From Sinomicrobium oceani (GTDB taxonomy: Bacteria > Bacteroidota > Bacteroidia > Flavobacteriales > Flavobacteriaceae), in the NCBI RefSeq assembly GCF_900119185.1, contig NZ_FPJE01000008.1, forward strand, positions 62,001 through 126,000: a stretch of DNA of 64,000 nucleotides. The letters are read 5' to 3'. A program made the translations under genes and the position numbers. The number at the start of each line of letters is the position of its first letter. Within the stretch, counting starts at the first letter, position 1. The notes under the pieces were generated by a model. It searched no databases. It had not been told where the DNA came from and was given only the letters and a program-made list of their open reading frames with translations. Positions 5,234-15,169 of this stretch are shown piece after piece.

Positions 5234-5428
5234 GAAAGTATATATAAGGATAAACGTTGAGGGTGGGGAGGGAGCCTGACTTATCTATTCTGATCAAAAA
5301 CATTTCATTTCCTACTTCGAAGACGACCAATTGAAATCTCGTTTGAGGAGCAAGAAAAGCCTGTGATAATCAATGAGTTTTCAAACATGTTCCCCGGTCT
5401 TTTTGGGAGGTTTATTACTAATCTGGTT

Positions 5429-6304
5429 TTAAGTAGTATACATCTGAGCCAATTGTTGCTGTAAATCGGTAGGTGTTTCATCCAACTTAGCTTTTACAAA
5501 TTTATTAAGTGCAGCAGGTGAATTAAACCCCAATTCAAAAGCGATCTCTTTATGGGAATAATTGGAGAGTAAGAGCAATTGTTTAATCTCGTTCATTATC
5601 CGGGTATGAATAGTTTCTATTGAAGTCAGCCCCGCAAGTTTCTTTGTGATCTCATTGAGTTTTTTGGGAGATATGTTAAGCTTTTCCGCATACCAACTTA
5701 CAGATCGCTCCGTCTTATAATTTCTTTCAAGCAGTTCGAGAAATCTTGCATAGATTTTCGATTTATCATTTACAGGAAGGCTTTCATCCCATTTTTTGTG
5801 AGCATATTCAACCAATTTCAGCAATAATATTTTGATATAAAATCGGGCCTGTTCTTTTTTGACCGATGTAAGATCGTGGTACAGCTTTTCTACCTGGCCC
5901 AAAAGCATCTTTATGTCGTCTCTTTCGGTTTCGGGGAGTTCCAGGTGGTTGAGCTTTTCCGATAAATTATAGTTGTATATTTTCAATTCATTTTTGAGAA
6001 TATCCGAACAGAACAATACCTCGTCAAAGAGCACCATGTACCCATGAAAGTCCTTGCTGATCTTTTCTTTCGAAGATAATTGTTCCGGAAATATCAGACA
6101 GATATTTCCTTCTCCAACAACATACCGACGATCTTCCACTTGCATATGCATTGTTCCCTGTTGCACAAAAATGAAACAAAAATGATCTTTAGAGTGCGGG
6201 TTTTTATATGGTTTCAGTCCTTCTTTGTCCATCTGAAAAATATGAAAGGGCGTAATAGCCCTTTCCGTACTACTCTGTATATCTTTTAAACGATGTGTGA
6301 TCAT
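5429..6304 (-). CDS. AraC-family transcriptional regulator (last gene of the RuMP operon)
   Basis: 291 residues. The N-terminal half looks like the cupin ligand-binding domain of AraC proteins (HFCFIFVQQGTMHMQV near 40-57). The C-terminal hundred residues are the double helix-turn-helix with typical LNISPKKLNEITKK and HKEIAFELGFNSPAALNKFVK segments. It begins only 26 bp after the pgl stop on the same strand, so it is probably the sixth gene of the hxlB-hxlA-gnd-zwf-pgl transcript and may autoregulate it. The effector is not evident; a metabolite of formaldehyde or hexulose-phosphate metabolism is a reasonable guess. The residues that would decide the ligand cannot be read from sequence alone. 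Confidence 0.88.
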   Translation of the reverse strand: MITHRLKDIQSSTERAITPFHIFQMDKEGLKPYKNPHSKDHFCFIFVQQGTMHMQVEDRRYVVGEGNICLIFPEQLSSKEKISKDFHGYMVLFDEVLFCSDILKNELKIYNYNLSEKLNHLELPETERDDIKMLLGQVEKLYHDLTSVKKEQARFYIKILLLKLVEYAHKKWDESLPVNDKSKIYARFLELLERNYKTERSVSWYAEKLNISPKKLNEITKKLAGLTSIETIHTRIMNEIKQLLLLSNYSHKEIAFELGFNSPAALNKFVKAKLDETPTDLQQQLAQMYTT

Positions 6305-6330
6305 AGCGGTTTATTTACGACAACTGCTAT

Positions 6331-7047
6331 TTATAAAAATTTTGCAGCTTTTTGATCGACCAGGTACAGAAGTTCTCCATTTACCGGATCTAATAATTGC
6401 GAGGGATATGTTGCCGGATCGTACTCGCCTTTTAATACCTGTTTTAATGCCGGGGCTTTGGCATCTCCAAAAGTGATTACAACGATGTTTTTAGCACGAT
6501 TTATAAATGGAGCTGTGAGTGTTATCCTGTACATTTCCTGACTATTCAGGTAGTATGCCGAAACCCACGCTTTCTCTTCATTCAAAACCTCTGTCTGCGG
6601 AAATAATGATGCCGTATGTCCGTCGTCTCCCATGCCCAGCAGCATTAAATCTATGGTAGCATCGTCGCCCAGTTTTTCTTTTAATTGAGTTTCATACGCT
6701 GCGGCGTAGACTTCCGGCTTTACACCCTCCTTGTACATGGGAAATATGTTTTCTTGTGGGATAGGGACGTGGTTCAAAAGAATTTCATACGCCATTTTGG
6801 TGTTACTCAATTCATGATCCAAAGGAACCCATCTCTCATCTCCCCAAAAAACCAGAATTTTACTCCAATCTATTTGTTTTTTATATTCATCAGTCGCTAA
6901 TAATTGATAAAGACCTTTCGGTGATGACCCTCCGGTTAATGAGACCGAGAAGTATCCCTTTTCTTTTATCGCGTCCTTGGCAGATTGACTGAAAATTTCG
7001 GCAGCTTTTCTTAAAATCTCTTCTTGTGAAGGAAATATCTTTAGCAT
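6331..7047 (-). CDS. pgl: 6-phosphogluconolactonase
   Basis: 238 residues of the DevB/SOL type, hydrolysing 6-phosphoglucono-1,5-lactone to 6-phosphogluconate in the cytoplasm. Diagnostic motifs: LTGGSSPKGLYQLL near the N-terminus, FWGDERWVP in the middle and LLGMGDDGHTASLFP in the second half. The frame is open upstream to 7134, but that extension lies inside zwf and is not protein-like. The ATG at 7047 (MLKIFPSQEEI), 11 bp after the zwf stop, is the sensible start. It sits between zwf and an AraC regulator on one transcript and supplies the middle step of glucose-6-phosphate oxidation. Confidence 0.95.
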   Translation of the reverse strand: MLKIFPSQEEILRKAAEIFSQSAKDAIKEKGYFSVSLTGGSSPKGLYQLLATDEYKKQIDWSKILVFWGDERWVPLDHELSNTKMAYEILLNHVPIPQENIFPMYKEGVKPEVYAAAYETQLKEKLGDDATIDLMLLGMGDDGHTASLFPQTEVLNEEKAWVSAYYLNSQEMYRITLTAPFINRAKNIVVITFGDAKAPALKQVLKGEYDPATYPSQLLDPVNGELLYLVDQKAAKFL

Positions 7048-7058
7048 ATCGTTCTTTT

Positions 7059-8585
7059 TTAGTTTATTTCGGAGTTTGAAATCCAGTAATGTCCCTGTCT
7101 TTTGAGAAGTTCGTCCGAAGCTTCCGGTCCCCAACTTCCTGCAGGGTAGGTCTGCATCTTTGCTATATCAAAACGTTCCCATGCTTCTTGTATATTTGAA
7201 ATAACATCCCATGCTTCCTCTACCTGATCAGATCGCATAAACAATGTAGGATCACCTTCCAGGACGTCAAGCAGGAGTGTTTCGTATGCTTCGGGGGTAT
7301 TGGGTGAACACTCGAAGAAATCGAATACCATATCTACAGGCTTAAGTTTCATATTCAGACCAGGTTTTTTGGCCATAAATGACAACTTTATATCCATTTC
7401 CGGCTGTATGTTGATCGTTAATTTGTTTGGAGATAACATGCTTTTATTATTACGAAAAGTATCATCAGGAACTTCTTTGAAACTGATGACGACCGAAGAT
7501 TGTTTTGCAGCCATACTTTTTCCGGTGCGCATATAGAAAGGAACGCCATTCCAGCGCTCGTTATCGATATAAAATTTCATGGCGACAAATGTTTCTGTTT
7601 TTGAACCCGGGTTTACACCGGGCTCCTCAAGGTACCCGACCTTATCATGACCGTCTATACGGCCCTGTGTATATTGTGCTCTTACCGTATAGTGCTCAAT
7701 ATCTTCCACATGTATTCTTCTGACGCTTTTTAATACGTCGGCTTTCTTATTTCTTATTTCGGAAGATTTGAAAACTGAGGGGGGCTCCATGGCAACCATA
7801 CATAGAATTTGCATGAGATGATTCTGTATCATATCGCGTAATGCACCTGCTCCGTCATAATAACTTCCACGCTCTTCTACACCAACTTTTTCAGCGACTG
7901 TAATTTGTATCGAATCGATATATTTGTTGTTCCACAAAGGTTCGAACATTATATTCGCAAAGCGAAACGCCAGGATGTTCTGGACCGTCTCTTTCCCCAG
8001 ATAATGATCGATTCTATAAATCTGATTTTCCTCGAAGTTATTGGACAATAAATTATTGAGATGTATAGCAGATGCTTTGTCATATCCAAAAGGTTTCTCG
8101 ATAATTATCCTGTCTTTTATGCGGTCCTTTACCAGCTCGTATTTTTTCAGGTTATTAGATACATTCTCGATAAAATTCGGAGCTATTGATAAATAAAAAA
8201 TTCTATCGGTCCTGTGAGCGATCTCCGAATCATATTCATCGAGTTCCTTTTTTAAGGAATAAAAAGATTGGTCATTTTTAATATCGAATGGCACATATCT
8301 TATCTTCTCCCGGAATTGGCTCCATTGGGCCTCGGAGAAGTCATGATTTCTTGAGAAATTATGGATGTTTTCTAAAATATATTCACCGAATGTTTCATCG
8401 GTATGCTCTTTTCTTCCCAAAGAAAAAATGGTAAAATCTTCCGGCATCCATCCTTCTAAGAATAAATTGAAAAATGCAGGGAATAATTTTCGCTTCGCCA
8501 GATCACCGGTAGCTCCGAAAACTACGATTGATGTTGGTGTTTGCTTATGTGATTTCATCTTGTCAGCTATTTTTTTCAATCCCAT
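7059..8585 (-). CDS. zwf: glucose-6-phosphate 1-dehydrogenase
   Basis: 508 residues. It oxidises glucose-6-phosphate to 6-phosphogluconolactone with NADP+. The nucleotide-binding start VVFGATGDLAKRKLF (about 22-36), the substrate site RIDHYLGKE and the IIEKPFG block are all present, and the length is normal. The first ATG (8585) overlaps the end of gnd by 10 bp. A second ATG at 8558 (MKSHKQTPTS) would remove the overlap, leave 17 bp after the gnd stop, and is an equally good start. The gene is third from last in the hxlB-to-araC operon, consistent with a cycle in which hexose phosphate made from formaldehyde is oxidised again. Function is certain; the start is not. Confidence 0.95.
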   Translation of the reverse strand: MGLKKIADKMKSHKQTPTSIVVFGATGDLAKRKLFPAFFNLFLEGWMPEDFTIFSLGRKEHTDETFGEYILENIHNFSRNHDFSEAQWSQFREKIRYVPFDIKNDQSFYSLKKELDEYDSEIAHRTDRIFYLSIAPNFIENVSNNLKKYELVKDRIKDRIIIEKPFGYDKASAIHLNNLLSNNFEENQIYRIDHYLGKETVQNILAFRFANIMFEPLWNNKYIDSIQITVAEKVGVEERGSYYDGAGALRDMIQNHLMQILCMVAMEPPSVFKSSEIRNKKADVLKSVRRIHVEDIEHYTVRAQYTQGRIDGHDKVGYLEEPGVNPGSKTETFVAMKFYIDNERWNGVPFYMRTGKSMAAKQSSVVISFKEVPDDTFRNNKSMLSPNKLTINIQPEMDIKLSFMAKKPGLNMKLKPVDMVFDFFECSPNTPEAYETLLLDVLEGDPTLFMRSDQVEEAWDVISNIQEAWERFDIAKMQTYPAGSWGPEASDELLKRQGHYWISNSEIN

Positions 8586-9970
8586 TTGGTGTGAAAAATC
8601 CCTTCTTTGTCAATTCTTTCATAGGTATGTGCACCAAAAAAGTCTCTTTGTGCCTGTATTATATTCGTGGGCAACTCTTTAGCGCGGTATGCATCGAAAT
8701 AAGCCAGTGCATTCATCCATGCTGCTGCCGGCACACCATTTTGAATGGCTTCTTTTATTATTGTGCGAATGCTGCTTTGCGAAGCGTTTAATTTATGGGC
8801 TATTTCCTGATCAAGCATTATATTTGATAATCCGGGATTGACTGAAAATGCTTTTCTGAAGTTTTCCAGCAGTTCGGCACGAATAATACATCCTCCCCGC
8901 CATATTTTACAAACGGTTTCTAATTGGAGATCGTAATGATACGTGTCTGATGCTACTTTGAGTTGTGCCAAACCCTGCGCATAAGTTACAATCATTGCAA
9001 AATAGAGCCCGTTTTTTAATTGATCTACATCCGGTTCGGAGTGTTCCTGATCATTATTCCAGTGCAATAACTGCGAAGCTTCGATTCTTTCCGGCTTAAA
9101 TTTGGAGATATCTCTCATGGATACCGCGGCATCAATAACCGGTATAGGGACTTGCAGGTCCATGGCATTCTGTGATGTCCATTTCCCCGTACCTTTAGAT
9201 TTTGCCCAATCTGATATGAGATCAACCAAGTGAATATCACCTTCTTTTTTCCGGAGAATTTGCGCAGTGATCTCGATGAGAAATGAGTTTAACTCTTCTT
9301 TATTCCATTGCTCAAATGTTTTTTGAATCGTTTCGGTATCCAGATGATATACTTTTTTCATCATATCACAGGTCTCTGCAATAAGCTGCATAATACCATA
9401 CTCTATACCATTATGAACCATTTTTACGTAATTACCTGCAGATCCGTTACCCAGAAATTCCACACAGGGTTCTGTACCTACTTTTGCAGCTATGGCTTCG
9501 AAAACAGGTCGTAAACGTTCATAAGCCACTTTGTCCCCACCGGGCATCATGCTTGGTCCTCTTCTGGCTCCGTTTTCTCCACCTGATATGCCCATGCCAA
9601 AGAAATGTATGCCTACATCTGATAATTCTTTGTATCTTCTCTCTGTATCTGTAAAATAGGTGTTTCCTCCATCTATCAGGATATCTCCTTTATTTAAAAA
9701 GGGTAATAGGCTTTTAATTGCACTATCTACCGGGTTCCCGGCAGGAACAAGTAGCATTATGGCCGTGGGTTTTTCAAGAGATCGTACAAATTCCTCCACC
9801 TGGGTAGTTGCCAGAATTTTATGATGATGCCGGGCTTCAGACTGTAAAGAAGCGACTTTTTCTGCATCCAGATCCAAACCCGCTACGGCATATCCATGAT
9901 CGGCCATATTAAGTAATAAGTTTCTACCCATTACTCCTAAACCCACTATTCCAAAATTGTAATGAATCAT
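8576..9970 (-). CDS. gnd: 6-phosphogluconate dehydrogenase, NADP-type (decarboxylating)
   Basis: 464 residues, the length of the long dimeric Gnd form. It converts 6-phosphogluconate to ribulose-5-phosphate plus CO2. GLGVMGRNLLLNMADHG at the N-terminus is the NADP Rossmann motif, GGENGARRGPSMMPGG the substrate loop, and GNGSAGNYVKMVHNGIEYG carries the catalytic Lys and His region. The long C-terminal helical tail is complete. It lies between hxlA (154 bp upstream) and zwf (overlap or near overlap). The gap to hxlA holds a 9-bp inverted repeat that may tune expression. In this cluster it regenerates the ribulose-5-phosphate acceptor for hexulose-phosphate synthase. Confidence 0.96.
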   Translation of the reverse strand: MIHYNFGIVGLGVMGRNLLLNMADHGYAVAGLDLDAEKVASLQSEARHHHKILATTQVEEFVRSLEKPTAIMLLVPAGNPVDSAIKSLLPFLNKGDILIDGGNTYFTDTERRYKELSDVGIHFFGMGISGGENGARRGPSMMPGGDKVAYERLRPVFEAIAAKVGTEPCVEFLGNGSAGNYVKMVHNGIEYGIMQLIAETCDMMKKVYHLDTETIQKTFEQWNKEELNSFLIEITAQILRKKEGDIHLVDLISDWAKSKGTGKWTSQNAMDLQVPIPVIDAAVSMRDISKFKPERIEASQLLHWNNDQEHSEPDVDQLKNGLYFAMIVTYAQGLAQLKVASDTYHYDLQLETVCKIWRGGCIIRAELLENFRKAFSVNPGLSNIMLDQEIAHKLNASQSSIRTIIKEAIQNGVPAAAWMNALAYFDAYRAKELPTNIIQAQRDFFGAHTYERIDKEGIFHTKWD

Positions 9971-10064
9971 TTTCTAATATTTATGAATATTCCTTTTGTG
10001 AATTTTAATTTGCTAATATCCGAAAATAATAGTTTATGAATAGAAACATATTGGATTTTCATAA

Positions 10065-10103
10065 CATCAAGGTCTTCCGTAATGAATTAAGAAAACCTTG
10101 ATG
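10065..10103 (-). other. stem-loop in the hxlA-gnd intergenic region
   Basis: CATCAAGGT (10065-10073) and ACCTTGATG (10095-10103) are a perfect 9-bp inverted repeat with a 21-nt loop, 22 bp past the hxlA stop. No T run follows on the minus strand, so it looks more like an mRNA end-protecting or processing hairpin than a full terminator. It could set a higher level of hxlBA relative to gnd-zwf-pgl. Confidence 0.5.
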
Positions 10104-10124
10104 ATGCGATGCTTCCCTAAAGAC

Positions 10125-10754
10125 CTATGCACCGATGGCTTCTTGCAAAGCTTTTGCAGCGGCTGCCGGATCTTTTGCTCCGTAGATACTTCCCCCGGCA
10201 ACGACAACAGTGGCACCGGCTGCAACAACGTCTTTTACGTTGTCGATGTTGACTCCGCCTGCAACTGAAAACGGCACCTGAGCTTCGATCCCTTCAGTAA
10301 TTAATTTTTGTATACTGTAGCCCGGCAGCGCCTGCTCGTCCAGTCCGGCATGGAGCTCTACAAATGCTACACCGAATGCAGAGACTTCCTTGGCACGTTG
10401 TACACGGTTTTGAACTCCTATGGTATCTACCACTACTTTTTTTTCCAATTTATGGGCAGCTTCTACAGCACCTTTGATCGTTGCGTCATCTACTGCCCCC
10501 ATAACCGTAACCAGATCAGCTCCGGCATTGAATGCCATTTCTGCTTCCAAAGCACCTGTGTCAGCGGTCTTCATATCTGCAAAAACGAGTTTGTCCGGAT
10601 GTGCAGATTTCATTTCCTTGATTACGTTAAGGCCTTCTGCCTTGATTAAAGGAGTCCCTAATTCGATAATATCTACATAAGGAGAAACTTTTGCAGCCAA
10701 TTCCAATGCTGCTTCAGTTGTTAATAAATCGATTGCTACTTGTAACTTAGCCAT
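10125..10754 (-). CDS. hxlA: 3-hexulose-6-phosphate synthase
   Basis: 209 residues of the OMP-decarboxylase superfamily. It condenses formaldehyde with ribulose-5-phosphate to D-arabino-3-hexulose-6-phosphate, the entry reaction of the ribulose monophosphate pathway. The metal and substrate motif D-M-K-T-A-D is at 60-65, ELHAGLDEQ at 133-141 is the region expected for the synthase, and VAGGVN near 164-169 is the phosphate loop. All expected residues are seen, and the next gene upstream is the partner isomerase hxlB (36 bp gap). Related proteins include keto-gulonate-6-phosphate decarboxylase, but the neighbouring isomerase and pentose-phosphate enzymes favour the synthase. Rare in Flavobacteria as far as I know. 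Confidence 0.9.
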   Translation of the reverse strand: MAKLQVAIDLLTTEAALELAAKVSPYVDIIELGTPLIKAEGLNVIKEMKSAHPDKLVFADMKTADTGALEAEMAFNAGADLVTVMGAVDDATIKGAVEAAHKLEKKVVVDTIGVQNRVQRAKEVSAFGVAFVELHAGLDEQALPGYSIQKLITEGIEAQVPFSVAGGVNIDNVKDVVAAGATVVVAGGSIYGAKDPAAAAKALQEAIGA

Positions 10755-10790
10755 AATACAAAAAATTAATGTTTATTTATTTCGTAATAA

Positions 10791-11357
10791 TTATTCAAGA
10801 TTGGCGTGTTTTGTCCAGAGATCCTCTTTTGTGAGTCCGGAATCTTTCCACAACTTCATAAATACAGCGTCCAGCATTATTAAGACGGACTGTTCGAACA
10901 AGCTTCCGGCATATTGTTCTGAAGCAGATTCTCCGAAATCGGTTTTTACGGCGGCTTTAATGATCAGTATATGGTCCGATATTCTCGCAATGGGGCTGTC
11001 TTTTGCCGTAGTGATAGCTACCACGGTTGCCTTTTGTCTTTTTGCTTTTTCTACAGCGGATACCAGTGTAGTCGTTGTTCCTGAGCCAGAGCCTACGATT
11101 AACATATCTCCTTCCAAAATTGCAGGGGTTGTGGTTTCGCCCATTATATGGACGTTGTAACCGAGATGCATAAAGCGCATGGCGGCCATTTTTAACGCTA
11201 ATCCGGTACGACCGGCTCCTGCGAAGAATATTCGTTTTACACTTTTTATACGGTCTTCCAGCAATGCTACGGAACGCCCTTCCATATGCGACAGCACAGC
11301 TTCATTTTCTGCTAATATGATCTTTAAATTTTTTATTGTAGTATTATCTTGTCTCAT
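10791..11357 (-). CDS. hxlB: 6-phospho-3-hexuloisomerase
   Basis: 188 residues forming a single SIS domain. It isomerises hexulose-6-phosphate to fructose-6-phosphate. GAGRTG at 47-52, the phosphosugar loop GSGSGTT at 89-95 and GSLFEQ at 151-156 are the family signatures, and the length fits. First gene of the operon hxlB-hxlA-gnd-zwf-pgl-araC. Upstream lies a 506-bp region with a -7 box at 11405-11412, so transcription should start near 11398. With hxlA it makes a formaldehyde-fixing module, as in methylotrophs and in formaldehyde detoxification of Bacillus subtilis (there regulated by HxlR, which is not the adjacent regulator here). Confidence 0.9.
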   Translation of the reverse strand: MRQDNTTIKNLKIILAENEAVLSHMEGRSVALLEDRIKSVKRIFFAGAGRTGLALKMAAMRFMHLGYNVHIMGETTTPAILEGDMLIVGSGSGTTTTLVSAVEKAKRQKATVVAITTAKDSPIARISDHILIIKAAVKTDFGESASEQYAGSLFEQSVLIMLDAVFMKLWKDSGLTKEDLWTKHANLE

Positions 11358-11404
11358 ATTCTCAATCTATAATTTCGGGATACCCCTCTCTTTTATTGAT
11401 ACTG

Positions 11405-11412
11405 CAAAATTA
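11405..11412 (-). promoter_or_regulatory. -7 box of the hxl operon promoter
   Basis: On the minus strand TAATTTTG fits TAnnTTTG and lies 48 bp before the hxlB ATG. A TTTG at 11443-11440 is too far upstream to be a standard -33 element, which would fit a promoter that depends on an activator. Confidence 0.45.
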
Positions 11413-11791
11413 TATGGTGAGGTCCTGATGCATATTATACAAATGATGTTATCTGATATACATTCACTCCTGTTTCGCCTTGTAAAGCGGCATGTGCCGT
11501 TTATGACCAATGACGGATAATAACAGAAAGGCAGAAGTATTTGAACCTTTGAAAAGCAAGCGGTCTATAGCTGGGAATAGCAGGTATGGTAGTACCGTTT
11601 CCTATAAGGGTAGCCGGAACTGTTGGCGGCTTTTAAAATTGCGGTTTGTTTGGAGCCGGGACAAAGGAAAAGGAGACCGGAAAATTATATGATCTATTTG
11701 CCTTTCGGGCAGAAGACTTCTGCTTTTTGGCAGCGGTTTTGAATGTAAAAGATATTAAGAAGACGTGGCTTAGAACTGATTTCCGTAAAAA

Positions 11792-11823
11792 CAAAAAACG
11801 CCCTGCGCGTGCAGAACGTTTTT
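11792..11823 (-). terminator. bidirectional terminator after fadE
   Basis: A-rich run, stem AACG..CTGC / GCAG..CGTT with small internal loops around GCGT, and T run on the far side. It lies 41 bp past the fadE stop and separates the fatty-acid genes from the hxl operon. Confidence 0.65.
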
Positions 11824-14886: not shown

Positions 14887-15169
14887 TTTTTAGATGTTAG
14901 ATGTTAGTATTGAGATGTTAGATTTTTGATTTGAACGAATAAAACATCTTCTGAATTTCTTCCTGCTTCTTCCGCTATATTGGAAGGAACGGAAACAGAA
15001 CTTCTCTTGATTTGAGAACTAATTCCGAATTTCTCATTATCCGGGATTTTAGAATAGCGTATATAAATTTCTTTGGCTCATGGTATCGATTTTTTCCAAA
15101 CAATTAAATCCTCTGCTTTATACATGTTATAAAAATCTAAATTCTAAAATCTCATTACTCCATGCTTTA
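14887..15169. other. 283-bp gap between fadN and fadA with short direct repeats
   Basis: Low-complexity AT-rich spacer inside an otherwise tight operon. TAGATGTTAG / ATGTTAG / GAGATGTTAGA repeat at 14891-14921, and at the other end (about 15130-15152) stands CTAAATTCTAAAATCTC. Such ATCTAACATC-like spacers are, as I recall, scattered in flavobacterial genomes. No gene is seen. Confidence 0.45.

What the first reader, a model, noticed from the sequence alone, without database searches (positions are those of the whole stretch)
5429..11357. A near-complete formaldehyde-oxidising (dissimilatory RuMP) cycle in one operon with its own AraC regulator
hxlB-hxlA-gnd-zwf-pgl-araC run on one strand with small gaps, so formaldehyde fixation (HxlA/HxlB) is joined to hexose-phosphate oxidation (Zwf/Pgl/Gnd). 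That closes a cycle giving CO2 and two NADPH per formaldehyde if a glucose-6-phosphate isomerase is present elsewhere. The order and the regulator as last gene are not the well-known Bacillus hxlR-hxlAB arrangement. In a flavobacterium the likely formaldehyde source would be demethylation of methylated sugars or other methyl compounds; that part is inference.
Basis: partly seen in the sequence, partly recalled or inferred. Interest (0 to 1): 0.82.

Follow-up and report, generated by a model that had tools for sequence, protein, structure and literature searches.

The report
Transferable formaldehyde-oxidising operon in flavobacteria
A block of six neighbouring genes looks like a self-regulated kit for turning toxic formaldehyde into CO2 and reducing power; this bacterium seems to have received it whole from another flavobacterium, and with it the only copy found of a central sugar-oxidising gene.

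Summary
In detail: hxlB, hxlA, gnd, zwf, pgl and araC lie on the minus strand (11357-5429) and the five enzymes pass curated cut-offs. Pgi is elsewhere in the genome, so all parts of a cyclic (dissimilatory RuMP) formaldehyde oxidation are encoded. (2) Four other Bacteroidota loci share the six-gene order; hxlA-gnd-zwf occurs in 21 of 80; three of the four carry pgi next. (3) A 30-bp operator-like element, starting 51-52 nt before a TAnnTTTG box, precedes the operon here and in 29 of 31 close-clade loci. Corrections: Gnd is predicted to use NAD+; no P450 was found; a hairpin after hxlA qualifies 'one transcript'. Activity, inducer and formaldehyde source are inference. Table 2 of PMC5023230 already shows hps-hpi beside zwf-gnd in methylotrophic Arthrobacter, so: new variant of a known kind.

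The parts
11435..11464 (-). operator-like element AATGTATATCAGATAACATCATTTGTATAA (two similar half-sites about 21 nt apart), probable AraC site
   Evidence: (one site in the 5.02-Mb genome at up to 3 mismatches; reversed-pattern control 0)
11405..11412 (-). TAATTTTG, match to TAnnTTTG, the Bacteroidota -7 promoter box (consensus recalled)
   Evidence: box begins 51 or 52 nt from the operator's start in the window and in 29 of 29 operator-bearing loci printed
10791..11357 (-). hxlB, 6-phospho-3-hexuloisomerase
   Evidence: RuMP_HxlB 233.5 bits (cut-off 160); best PDB match 1m3s (yckF)
10125..10754 (-). hxlA, 3-hexulose-6-phosphate synthase
   Evidence: RuMP_HxlA 252.8 bits (cut-off 200); best PDB match 3ajx, 262.6 bits over residues 3-207
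10065..10103 (-). hairpin in the hxlA-gnd gap (14-bp stem, no T run)
   Evidence: best 60-nt window -19.0 kcal/mol; 40 mononucleotide shuffles mean -10.1, minimum -15.1
8576..9970 (-). gnd, 6-phosphogluconate dehydrogenase, predicted NAD+-preferring
   Evidence: gnd 588.5 bits (cut-off 426.7); (GLDLD where solved relatives have YNRx)
7059..8585 (-). zwf, glucose-6-phosphate dehydrogenase, the only copy found in the genome
   Evidence: zwf 612.1 bits (cut-off 400.6)
6331..7047 (-). pgl, 6-phosphogluconolactonase
   Evidence: pgl 207.1 bits (cut-off 124.45); start read
5429..6304 (-). araC-family regulator, last gene
   Evidence: HTH_18 and AraC_binding; (27 aligned rows including the window; Cys99 invariant)
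5234..11792 (.). block absent from the same site in both same-genus genomes examined (edges approximate)
   Evidence: ytxJ and the acyl-CoA dehydrogenase gene are neighbours in L144 and L145; composition

Best explanation
A horizontally acquired, self-regulated cassette for cyclic formaldehyde oxidation. HxlA joins formaldehyde to ribulose 5-phosphate; HxlB makes fructose 6-phosphate; the chromosomal Pgi makes glucose 6-phosphate; Zwf, Pgl and Gnd oxidise it, release CO2 and regenerate ribulose 5-phosphate. Net: formaldehyde to CO2 with one NADPH (Zwf) and one NADH (Gnd). AraC probably activates the operon from the element before hxlB and, being the last gene, its own synthesis. Shown: genes, order, shared operator-like element, empty site, a single zwf found in the genome. 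Inferred: activities, direction of flux, coenzymes, inducer, AraC binding, cotranscription, physiological role (detoxification with energy gain).
For: All five enzymes above curated cut-offs and Pgi in the genome. hxlA-gnd-zwf in 21 of 80 kept loci, six-gene order in four; three of those four have pgi as the next gene. Operator plus TAnnTTTG at fixed distance in the window and 29 of 31 close-clade loci (clade). One operator site in the genome. Empty site in 2 of 2 same-genus genomes, which also lack zwf. GC3 34.8-40.7% in the six genes against 45.6-52.1% in five neighbours. Gnd and Zwf of the window group with the four araC-last loci at SH-aLRT 100. Linking a ribulose-5-phosphate generator to HPS makes sense for formaldehyde fixation, not for the reverse (inference).
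Against: No activity or expression data. No formaldehyde-generating enzyme identified in G000 in the families searched. A hairpin or terminator between hxlA and gnd in the 22 operons folded. 53 of the 80 kept loci show no gnd/zwf hit with hxlA, and 6 actinobacterial ones show them in another layout, so the link is not general. The HxlA, HxlB and AraC trees do not give the araC-last set strong support, and the window's Zwf is flagged as a long branch. Loss in the two relatives instead of gain is not excluded.
Confidence: 0.78

Rival explanations
1. Mainly capture or assimilation: gnd-zwf-pgl only supply ribulose 5-phosphate so that HxlAB can trap formaldehyde, and the fructose 6-phosphate goes to glycolysis instead of round the cycle.
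For: The same genes serve both; for Bacillus subtilis the review PMC8879981 says that the fate of fructose 6-phosphate differs from that in methylotrophs (section 2.2 read); pgi is not in the window's cassette.
Against: pgi follows araC in L056, L058 and L059, which points to a cycle.
Confidence: 0.25
2. Reverse direction: HxlB/HxlA split fructose 6-phosphate to make ribulose 5-phosphate for nucleotide synthesis, as in archaea lacking the oxidative pentose pathway (recalled).
For: Same two enzymes.
Against: The adjacent genes already make ribulose 5-phosphate; the two same-genus genomes live without HxlA above cut-off and without zwf.
Confidence: 0.03
3. The block is an ordinary oxidative pentose phosphate operon (NADPH supply) that happens to stand beside hxlBA.
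For: gnd, zwf and pgl lie together, without hxlBA in the stretch held, in 7 of 7 zwf loci of related genomes; the hairpin after hxlA separates the two halves.
Against: Both halves are absent together from the relatives' site; the window's gnd and zwf are closest to those of other hxl operons; no TAnnTTTG box stands in the window's hxlA-gnd gap.
Confidence: 0.12

Closest known systems
C1 gene islands of methylotrophic Arthrobacter (PMC5023230; passages with part of Table 2, section 3.4 read; Figure 2 not held)
   Same: By the gene numbers of Table 2, Hpi, Hps, Zwf, OpcA and Gnd are near neighbours in strain 35W (3587, 3588, 3590, 3591, 3592) and in MA-N2 (1686, 1687, 1690, 1691, 1692); lateral transfer of such clusters is proposed there.
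   Different: Those strains use methylamines and carry primary C1 oxidation genes; OpcA stands beside Zwf there. The present block has pgl and an AraC gene, is in Bacteroidota, and its host shows no methanol-oxidising enzyme above cut-off.
Cyclic (dissimilatory) RuMP oxidation in Methylobacillus flagellatus, Bacillus methanolicus and others
   Same: Same enzyme set; an NAD+-dependent 6-phosphogluconate dehydrogenase (GndA) is known in M. flagellatus (PMC5574463, passages).
   Different: Review PMC8879981 section 2.1 (passages) says that to its authors' knowledge the cycle was only found active in RuMP methylotrophs; but its section 2.2 (read) lists the cyclic pathway also in the non-methylotrophs Burkholderia cepacia TM1 (formaldehyde from vanillate) and B. 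subtilis. A one-locus cassette in Bacteroidota is not mentioned in what I saw; the word Bacteroidetes does not occur in that review.
hxlR-hxlAB of Bacillus subtilis
   Same: HPS and PHI pair for formaldehyde.
   Different: Regulator here is AraC-type, not HxlR; hxlB precedes hxlA; gnd-zwf-pgl are linked. 'AraC' does not occur in review PMC8879981.
RuMP genes of Zobellia galactanivorans, reported up-regulated on porphyran (Brott et al. 2022, PMC9400963, not held; seen only through PMC10033563 passages)
   Same: Flavobacterial RuMP detoxification already proposed.
   Different: Gene order there not seen by me; in seven related genomes here hxlBA has a divergent araC and zwf lies elsewhere.

Membership tests
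Cyclic (dissimilatory) RuMP pathway | 3-hexulose-6-phosphate synthase and 6-phospho-3-hexuloisomerase | tested here: met
   (by sequence)
Cyclic (dissimilatory) RuMP pathway | Pgi, Zwf, Pgl and Gnd to close the cycle | tested here: met
   (by sequence); Pgi is on another contig
Cyclic (dissimilatory) RuMP pathway | flux of formaldehyde carbon to CO2 | not testable with these tools
   needs 13C labelling or enzyme assays
RuMP methylotroph | primary oxidation of methanol or methylamines to formaldehyde | tested here: inconclusive
   no PQQ alcohol dehydrogenase above cut-off, one contig-edge fragment; no FAO_M; other methanol and methylamine routes not searched
Bacillus hxlR-hxlAB system | HxlR-type regulator beside hxlAB | tested here: not met
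   the adjacent regulator is AraC-type
3-keto-L-gulonate-6-phosphate decarboxylase (UlaD/SgbH) | score above the family cut-off | tested here: not met
   NF009831 95.2 of 294 bits, NF009832 124.2 of 250 bits
NADP-dependent 6-phosphogluconate dehydrogenase | Asn-Arg at the 2'-phosphate site (role of the motif recalled; NR seen in the solved relatives aligned) | tested here: not met
   the family models named NADP-dependent still score above cut-off
AraC/XylS regulators | HTH_18 with AraC-type effector domain | tested here: met

The most novel reading that the evidence does not exclude
A transferable, self-amplifying formaldehyde-oxidation cassette in non-methylotrophic Bacteroidota, switched on by an AraC-type formaldehyde sensor (candidate residue Cys99) acting at a dedicated operator, with a wider regulon that in some species takes in pgi and an iron alcohol dehydrogenase. 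In the window's species it brings the only glucose-6-phosphate dehydrogenase, so the oxidative pentose phosphate pathway would run only when formaldehyde is present.
Probability: 0.4. Interest if true: 0.63.

Novelty: new variant of a known kind. Interest (0 to 1): 0.45.

Why it matters
Formaldehyde fixation by Hps/Phi in non-methylotrophs is known, but a compact, regulated and apparently transferable set that also carries the oxidative branch, spread through flavobacteria, would mean that formaldehyde is a regular hazard or a supplementary energy source for them. It offers a natural gene set, a candidate formaldehyde-inducible Bacteroidota promoter and a possible new class of formaldehyde-responsive regulator, and a clean test: in this species one deletion would remove both formaldehyde tolerance and the only Zwf.

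Tried and rejected
P450 demethylation as source in this genome: 0 matches in G000, although 7 of the 7 other strong hxlA carriers searched have P450s. PQQ alcohol dehydrogenase: 0 of 10 genomes over cut-off; G000 has two partial matches (70.7 and 46.3 bits, cut-off 480.05) at the start of a contig. FAO_M: 0 of 10. Class III formaldehyde dehydrogenase: 0 of 10 over cut-off, G000 best 73.1 of 543.95 bits. Further operator sites in G000: none at up to 3 mismatches. A class-wide search for half-sites plus box matched 3 of 395 genomes, one being G000; the other two sites were not followed and may be chance, since the control also matched in one genome. A close Fe-ADH in G000: best 30% identity. A second promoter before gnd: no TAnnTTTG in the window's gap; 6 of 22 gaps have a match (L053, L072, L074, L076, L077, L121). 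Rfam: no match in the window. AraC: Cys99 is invariant in 27 of 27 rows, but so are 9 of the 10 residues 98-107, so it is a lead only. Papers on this gene order in Bacteroidota: the listed parts of the searches (no paper) showed none that I recognised; several lists were capped (for example 15 of 385) and most subscription papers are not held.
Full report
What is there. The minus strand of the window carries hxlB (11357-10791), hxlA (10754-10125), gnd (9970-8576), zwf (8585-7059), pgl (about 7047-6331) and an araC-family gene (6304-5429). The five enzymes exceed the curated NCBIfam cut-offs of their families and the regulator has an AraC effector domain and HTH. HxlA's best solved relative is 3ajx, a 3-hexulose-6-phosphate synthase (262.6 bits over residues 3-207); HxlB's is yckF, 1m3s, which I recall to be the Bacillus PHI. 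HxlA scores far under the cut-offs of the 3-keto-L-gulonate-6-phosphate decarboxylase models (95.2 of 294; 124.2 of 250). The remaining enzyme of the cycle, Pgi, is encoded on another contig (739.8 bits). The genome (5.02 Mb, 57 contigs, 99.98% complete by the tool's figure) is unnamed.

One unit, probably acquired as one. In the two same-genus genomes among those searched (2 of 2) the flanking genes ytxJ and acyl-CoA dehydrogenase are direct neighbours and the six genes are absent. Neither genome has a zwf match, while the window's genome has exactly one, in this operon; neither has HxlA above the cut-off. The window's genome has a second gnd, in an open frame of 644 residues whose first part reads like a gluconokinase and which stands beside a permease-like frame (my reading of the letters). 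GC3 of the six genes is 34.8-40.7%, of five neighbouring genes 45.6-52.1%. In the Zwf and Gnd trees the window groups with the four loci that have the same six-gene order, SH-aLRT 100 in both; the window's Zwf is flagged there as a long branch. In the HxlA tree it falls in a clade of 32 rows (SH-aLRT 97) with Flavobacterium, Chryseobacterium, Sphingobacterium and others, while the HxlA of seven other genomes of its own family fall in a second clade; its exact place inside the first clade is weakly resolved. The AraC and HxlB trees support only the larger set of araC-last plus Sphingobacterium loci (100 and 96). Gain by transfer fits best; loss in the two relatives is not excluded.

How common. 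Of 299 genomes of the same family, 9 have HxlA above the cut-off, one of them (G018) barely, at 200.3 bits. In the seven other strong carriers araC is divergent from hxlBA (7 of 7) and the zwf match lies elsewhere (7 of 7). A scan of GTDB species gave 273 confirmed HxlA relatives, of which the tool kept the best 80, so counts lean towards close relatives. Among those 80: hxlA followed on the same strand by gnd and zwf in 21 (pgl seen in 20 of them); of the 21, araC is last in 4 (L056 Chryseobacterium sp. ZHDP1, L058 Flavobacterium erciyesense, L059 Chryseobacterium sp. FP211-J200, L083 Epilithonimonas hispanica), first on the same strand in 15, divergent in 1 (L121), not visible at a contig edge in 1 (L052). 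Six Sphingobacterium loci have hxlB-hxlA-araC without the other three. Six actinobacterial loci (L096, L103, L111, L113, L115, L120) have zwf and a gnd in another layout. The other 53 of 80 (the Sphingobacterium six included) show no gnd or zwf hit. L082 has no hxlB hit. The order is therefore unlike Bacillus but shared.

The cycle closed in relatives. In L056, L058 and L059 the gene after araC is pgi (NCBIfam confirms L056 and L058, 850.8 and 845.5 bits, cut-off 492; L059 matches L056 at 81%), followed by an alcohol dehydrogenase of the iron-containing family (Pfam for L056) that no NCBIfam model claims at its cut-off (L056 and L058). In L083 only the first 100 of 548 residues of pgi match; in L059 the alcohol dehydrogenase is split in two frames. 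Two Rhodococcus koreensis loci (L113, L120) also have a full-length pgi match near hxlBA.

Regulation. Aligning upstream regions of the window and ten araC-last or Sphingobacterium loci exposed a 30-bp element with two similar half-sites about 21 nt apart. Eighty-seven loci were scanned for it with up to 5 substitutions: 35 gave a match. Of these, 29 are first-clade loci (29 of 31; L055 and L060 lack it) with the element upstream of hxlB (in L073 an Fe-ADH-like remnant lies between; in L082, without an hxlB hit, it precedes hxlA); 19 of the 29 were not used to derive the pattern. The other 6 are second-clade loci with 5 substitutions each, three of them (L101, L108, L109) shortly before hxlB. 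Eighty mononucleotide-shuffled loci gave 2 matches. In the window and the 29, a TAnnTTTG box (Bacteroidota -7 element, recalled) begins 51 or 52 nt from the element's start. The window's genome has a single site at up to 3 mismatches and none for the reversed pattern. A similar element stands before the alcohol dehydrogenase of L056 (3 substitutions) and L058 (5) with a TAnnTTTG box at, by my count, 51 nt; in L059 it is recognisable by eye only and without the box. This suggests, without proof, that the alcohol dehydrogenase is in the same regulon in those species. When araC is last, it would be under the promoter that it controls. Cys99 of AraC is invariant in 27 of 27 rows, but it lies in a stretch in which 9 of 10 residues are invariant; HxlR of Bacillus senses formaldehyde by a Cys-Lys crosslink (review PMC8879981, passages), so Cys99 is a lead.

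Corrections. Gnd: where the solved enzymes aligned (NADP-dependent, as I recall) have Asn-Arg, the window has Asp-Leu. Asp stands there in the window and in 21 of 21 operon Gnds, and also in 7 of 7 Gnds beside stand-alone zwf genes of the family, while the second Gnd of this genome has Asn-Arg; so the trait is not peculiar to hxl operons. Asp at this place is expected to favour NAD+ (recalled). Zwf keeps an Arg in the corresponding motif, so the predicted yield is one NADPH and one NADH. M. flagellatus has an NAD+-dependent GndA (PMC5574463, passages). Transcript: the hxlA-gnd gap holds a hairpin in the window and the 21 operon loci folded; its energy is below every one of 40 mononucleotide shuffles in 18 of the 22, and not in L058, L071, L082 and L121 (the shuffles were scanned with a coarser step, which favours the real sequences slightly); in several Flavobacterium loci a run of T follows, as in an intrinsic terminator, whereas the window's hairpin has none. 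Partial read-through is likely.

Source of formaldehyde. No P450 in the window's genome, no FAO_M domain, no class III formaldehyde dehydrogenase above cut-off, and only a contig-edge fragment resembling PQQ dehydrogenases. The source may be external, or a route not searched.

Against what is known. The review PMC8879981 says in section 2.1 (passages) that to its authors' knowledge the cyclic dissimilation was found active only in RuMP methylotrophs, but in section 2.2 (read) it lists the cyclic pathway in the non-methylotrophs Burkholderia cepacia TM1, where Hps and Phi rise on vanillate, and B. subtilis. So use by a non-methylotroph is not new in itself. Table 2 of PMC5023230 (part seen) gives consecutive or nearly consecutive gene numbers to Hpi, Hps, Zwf, OpcA and Gnd in two methylamine-using Arthrobacter strains, so linkage of the fixing and oxidising halves is not new either; that paper also proposes lateral transfer of such clusters (section 3.4). 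RuMP genes in Zobellia were reported as up-regulated on porphyran (Brott et al. 2022, seen through PMC10033563), and Maribacter halichondriae was noted to carry hxlA (PMC10942906, passages). What I did not find described (search; capped listings; open-licence library only) is the Bacteroidota operon with its AraC gene, its conserved operator, and its presence as a whole cassette bringing the only zwf. I call it a new variant of a known kind.

Noticed in passing
G227, G001, G286, G236 (places): A P450 match and a zinc alcohol dehydrogenase (214-226 bits to the class III model, under cut-off) lie about 1.7 kb apart in all four genomes, which also carry second-clade hxlBA; this resembles the porphyran 6-O-methyl-galactose demethylation genes of Zobellia and Formosa (PMC10033563).
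   Followed up: no
window 14952-15125 (minus); L144 12799-13149; L145 3724-4095 and 5414-5764: 23S rRNA-intervening-sequence-type proteins (Pfam 23S_rRNA_IVP for the L144 one) lie between the fatty-acid genes of the two same-genus genomes; the window has a stop-broken remnant between thiolase and fadB.
   Followed up: partly
L146, open frame from 1714 (G000:C9): Second gnd of the genome in one 644-residue open frame with a kinase-like N-terminal part, beside a permease-like frame; NADP-type motif YNRH.
   Followed up: partly
L061 14711: A perfect second copy of the operator element followed by a short stretch that reads like the end of hxlA, as if left by a duplication (my reading).
   Followed up: partly
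L073 7288-7836: Between the operator and hxlB lies a 182-residue frame that matches the Fe-ADH at 65% over 136 residues; much shorter than the 383-residue enzyme, so apparently a remnant.
   Followed up: partly
hxlA-gnd gap of Flavobacterium loci such as L062 and L074-L078: Stem of 12-17 bp with a long T run, like an intrinsic terminator, directly after hxlA, although gnd-zwf-pgl follow.
   Followed up: partly
L010-L022 (13 of 14 matches of 139-149 bits): A second HxlA-like family in this bacterial family, below the HxlA cut-off; one member (L010) is closest to 9lj9, a 3-hexulose-6-phosphate synthase. Function not determined.
   Followed up: partly
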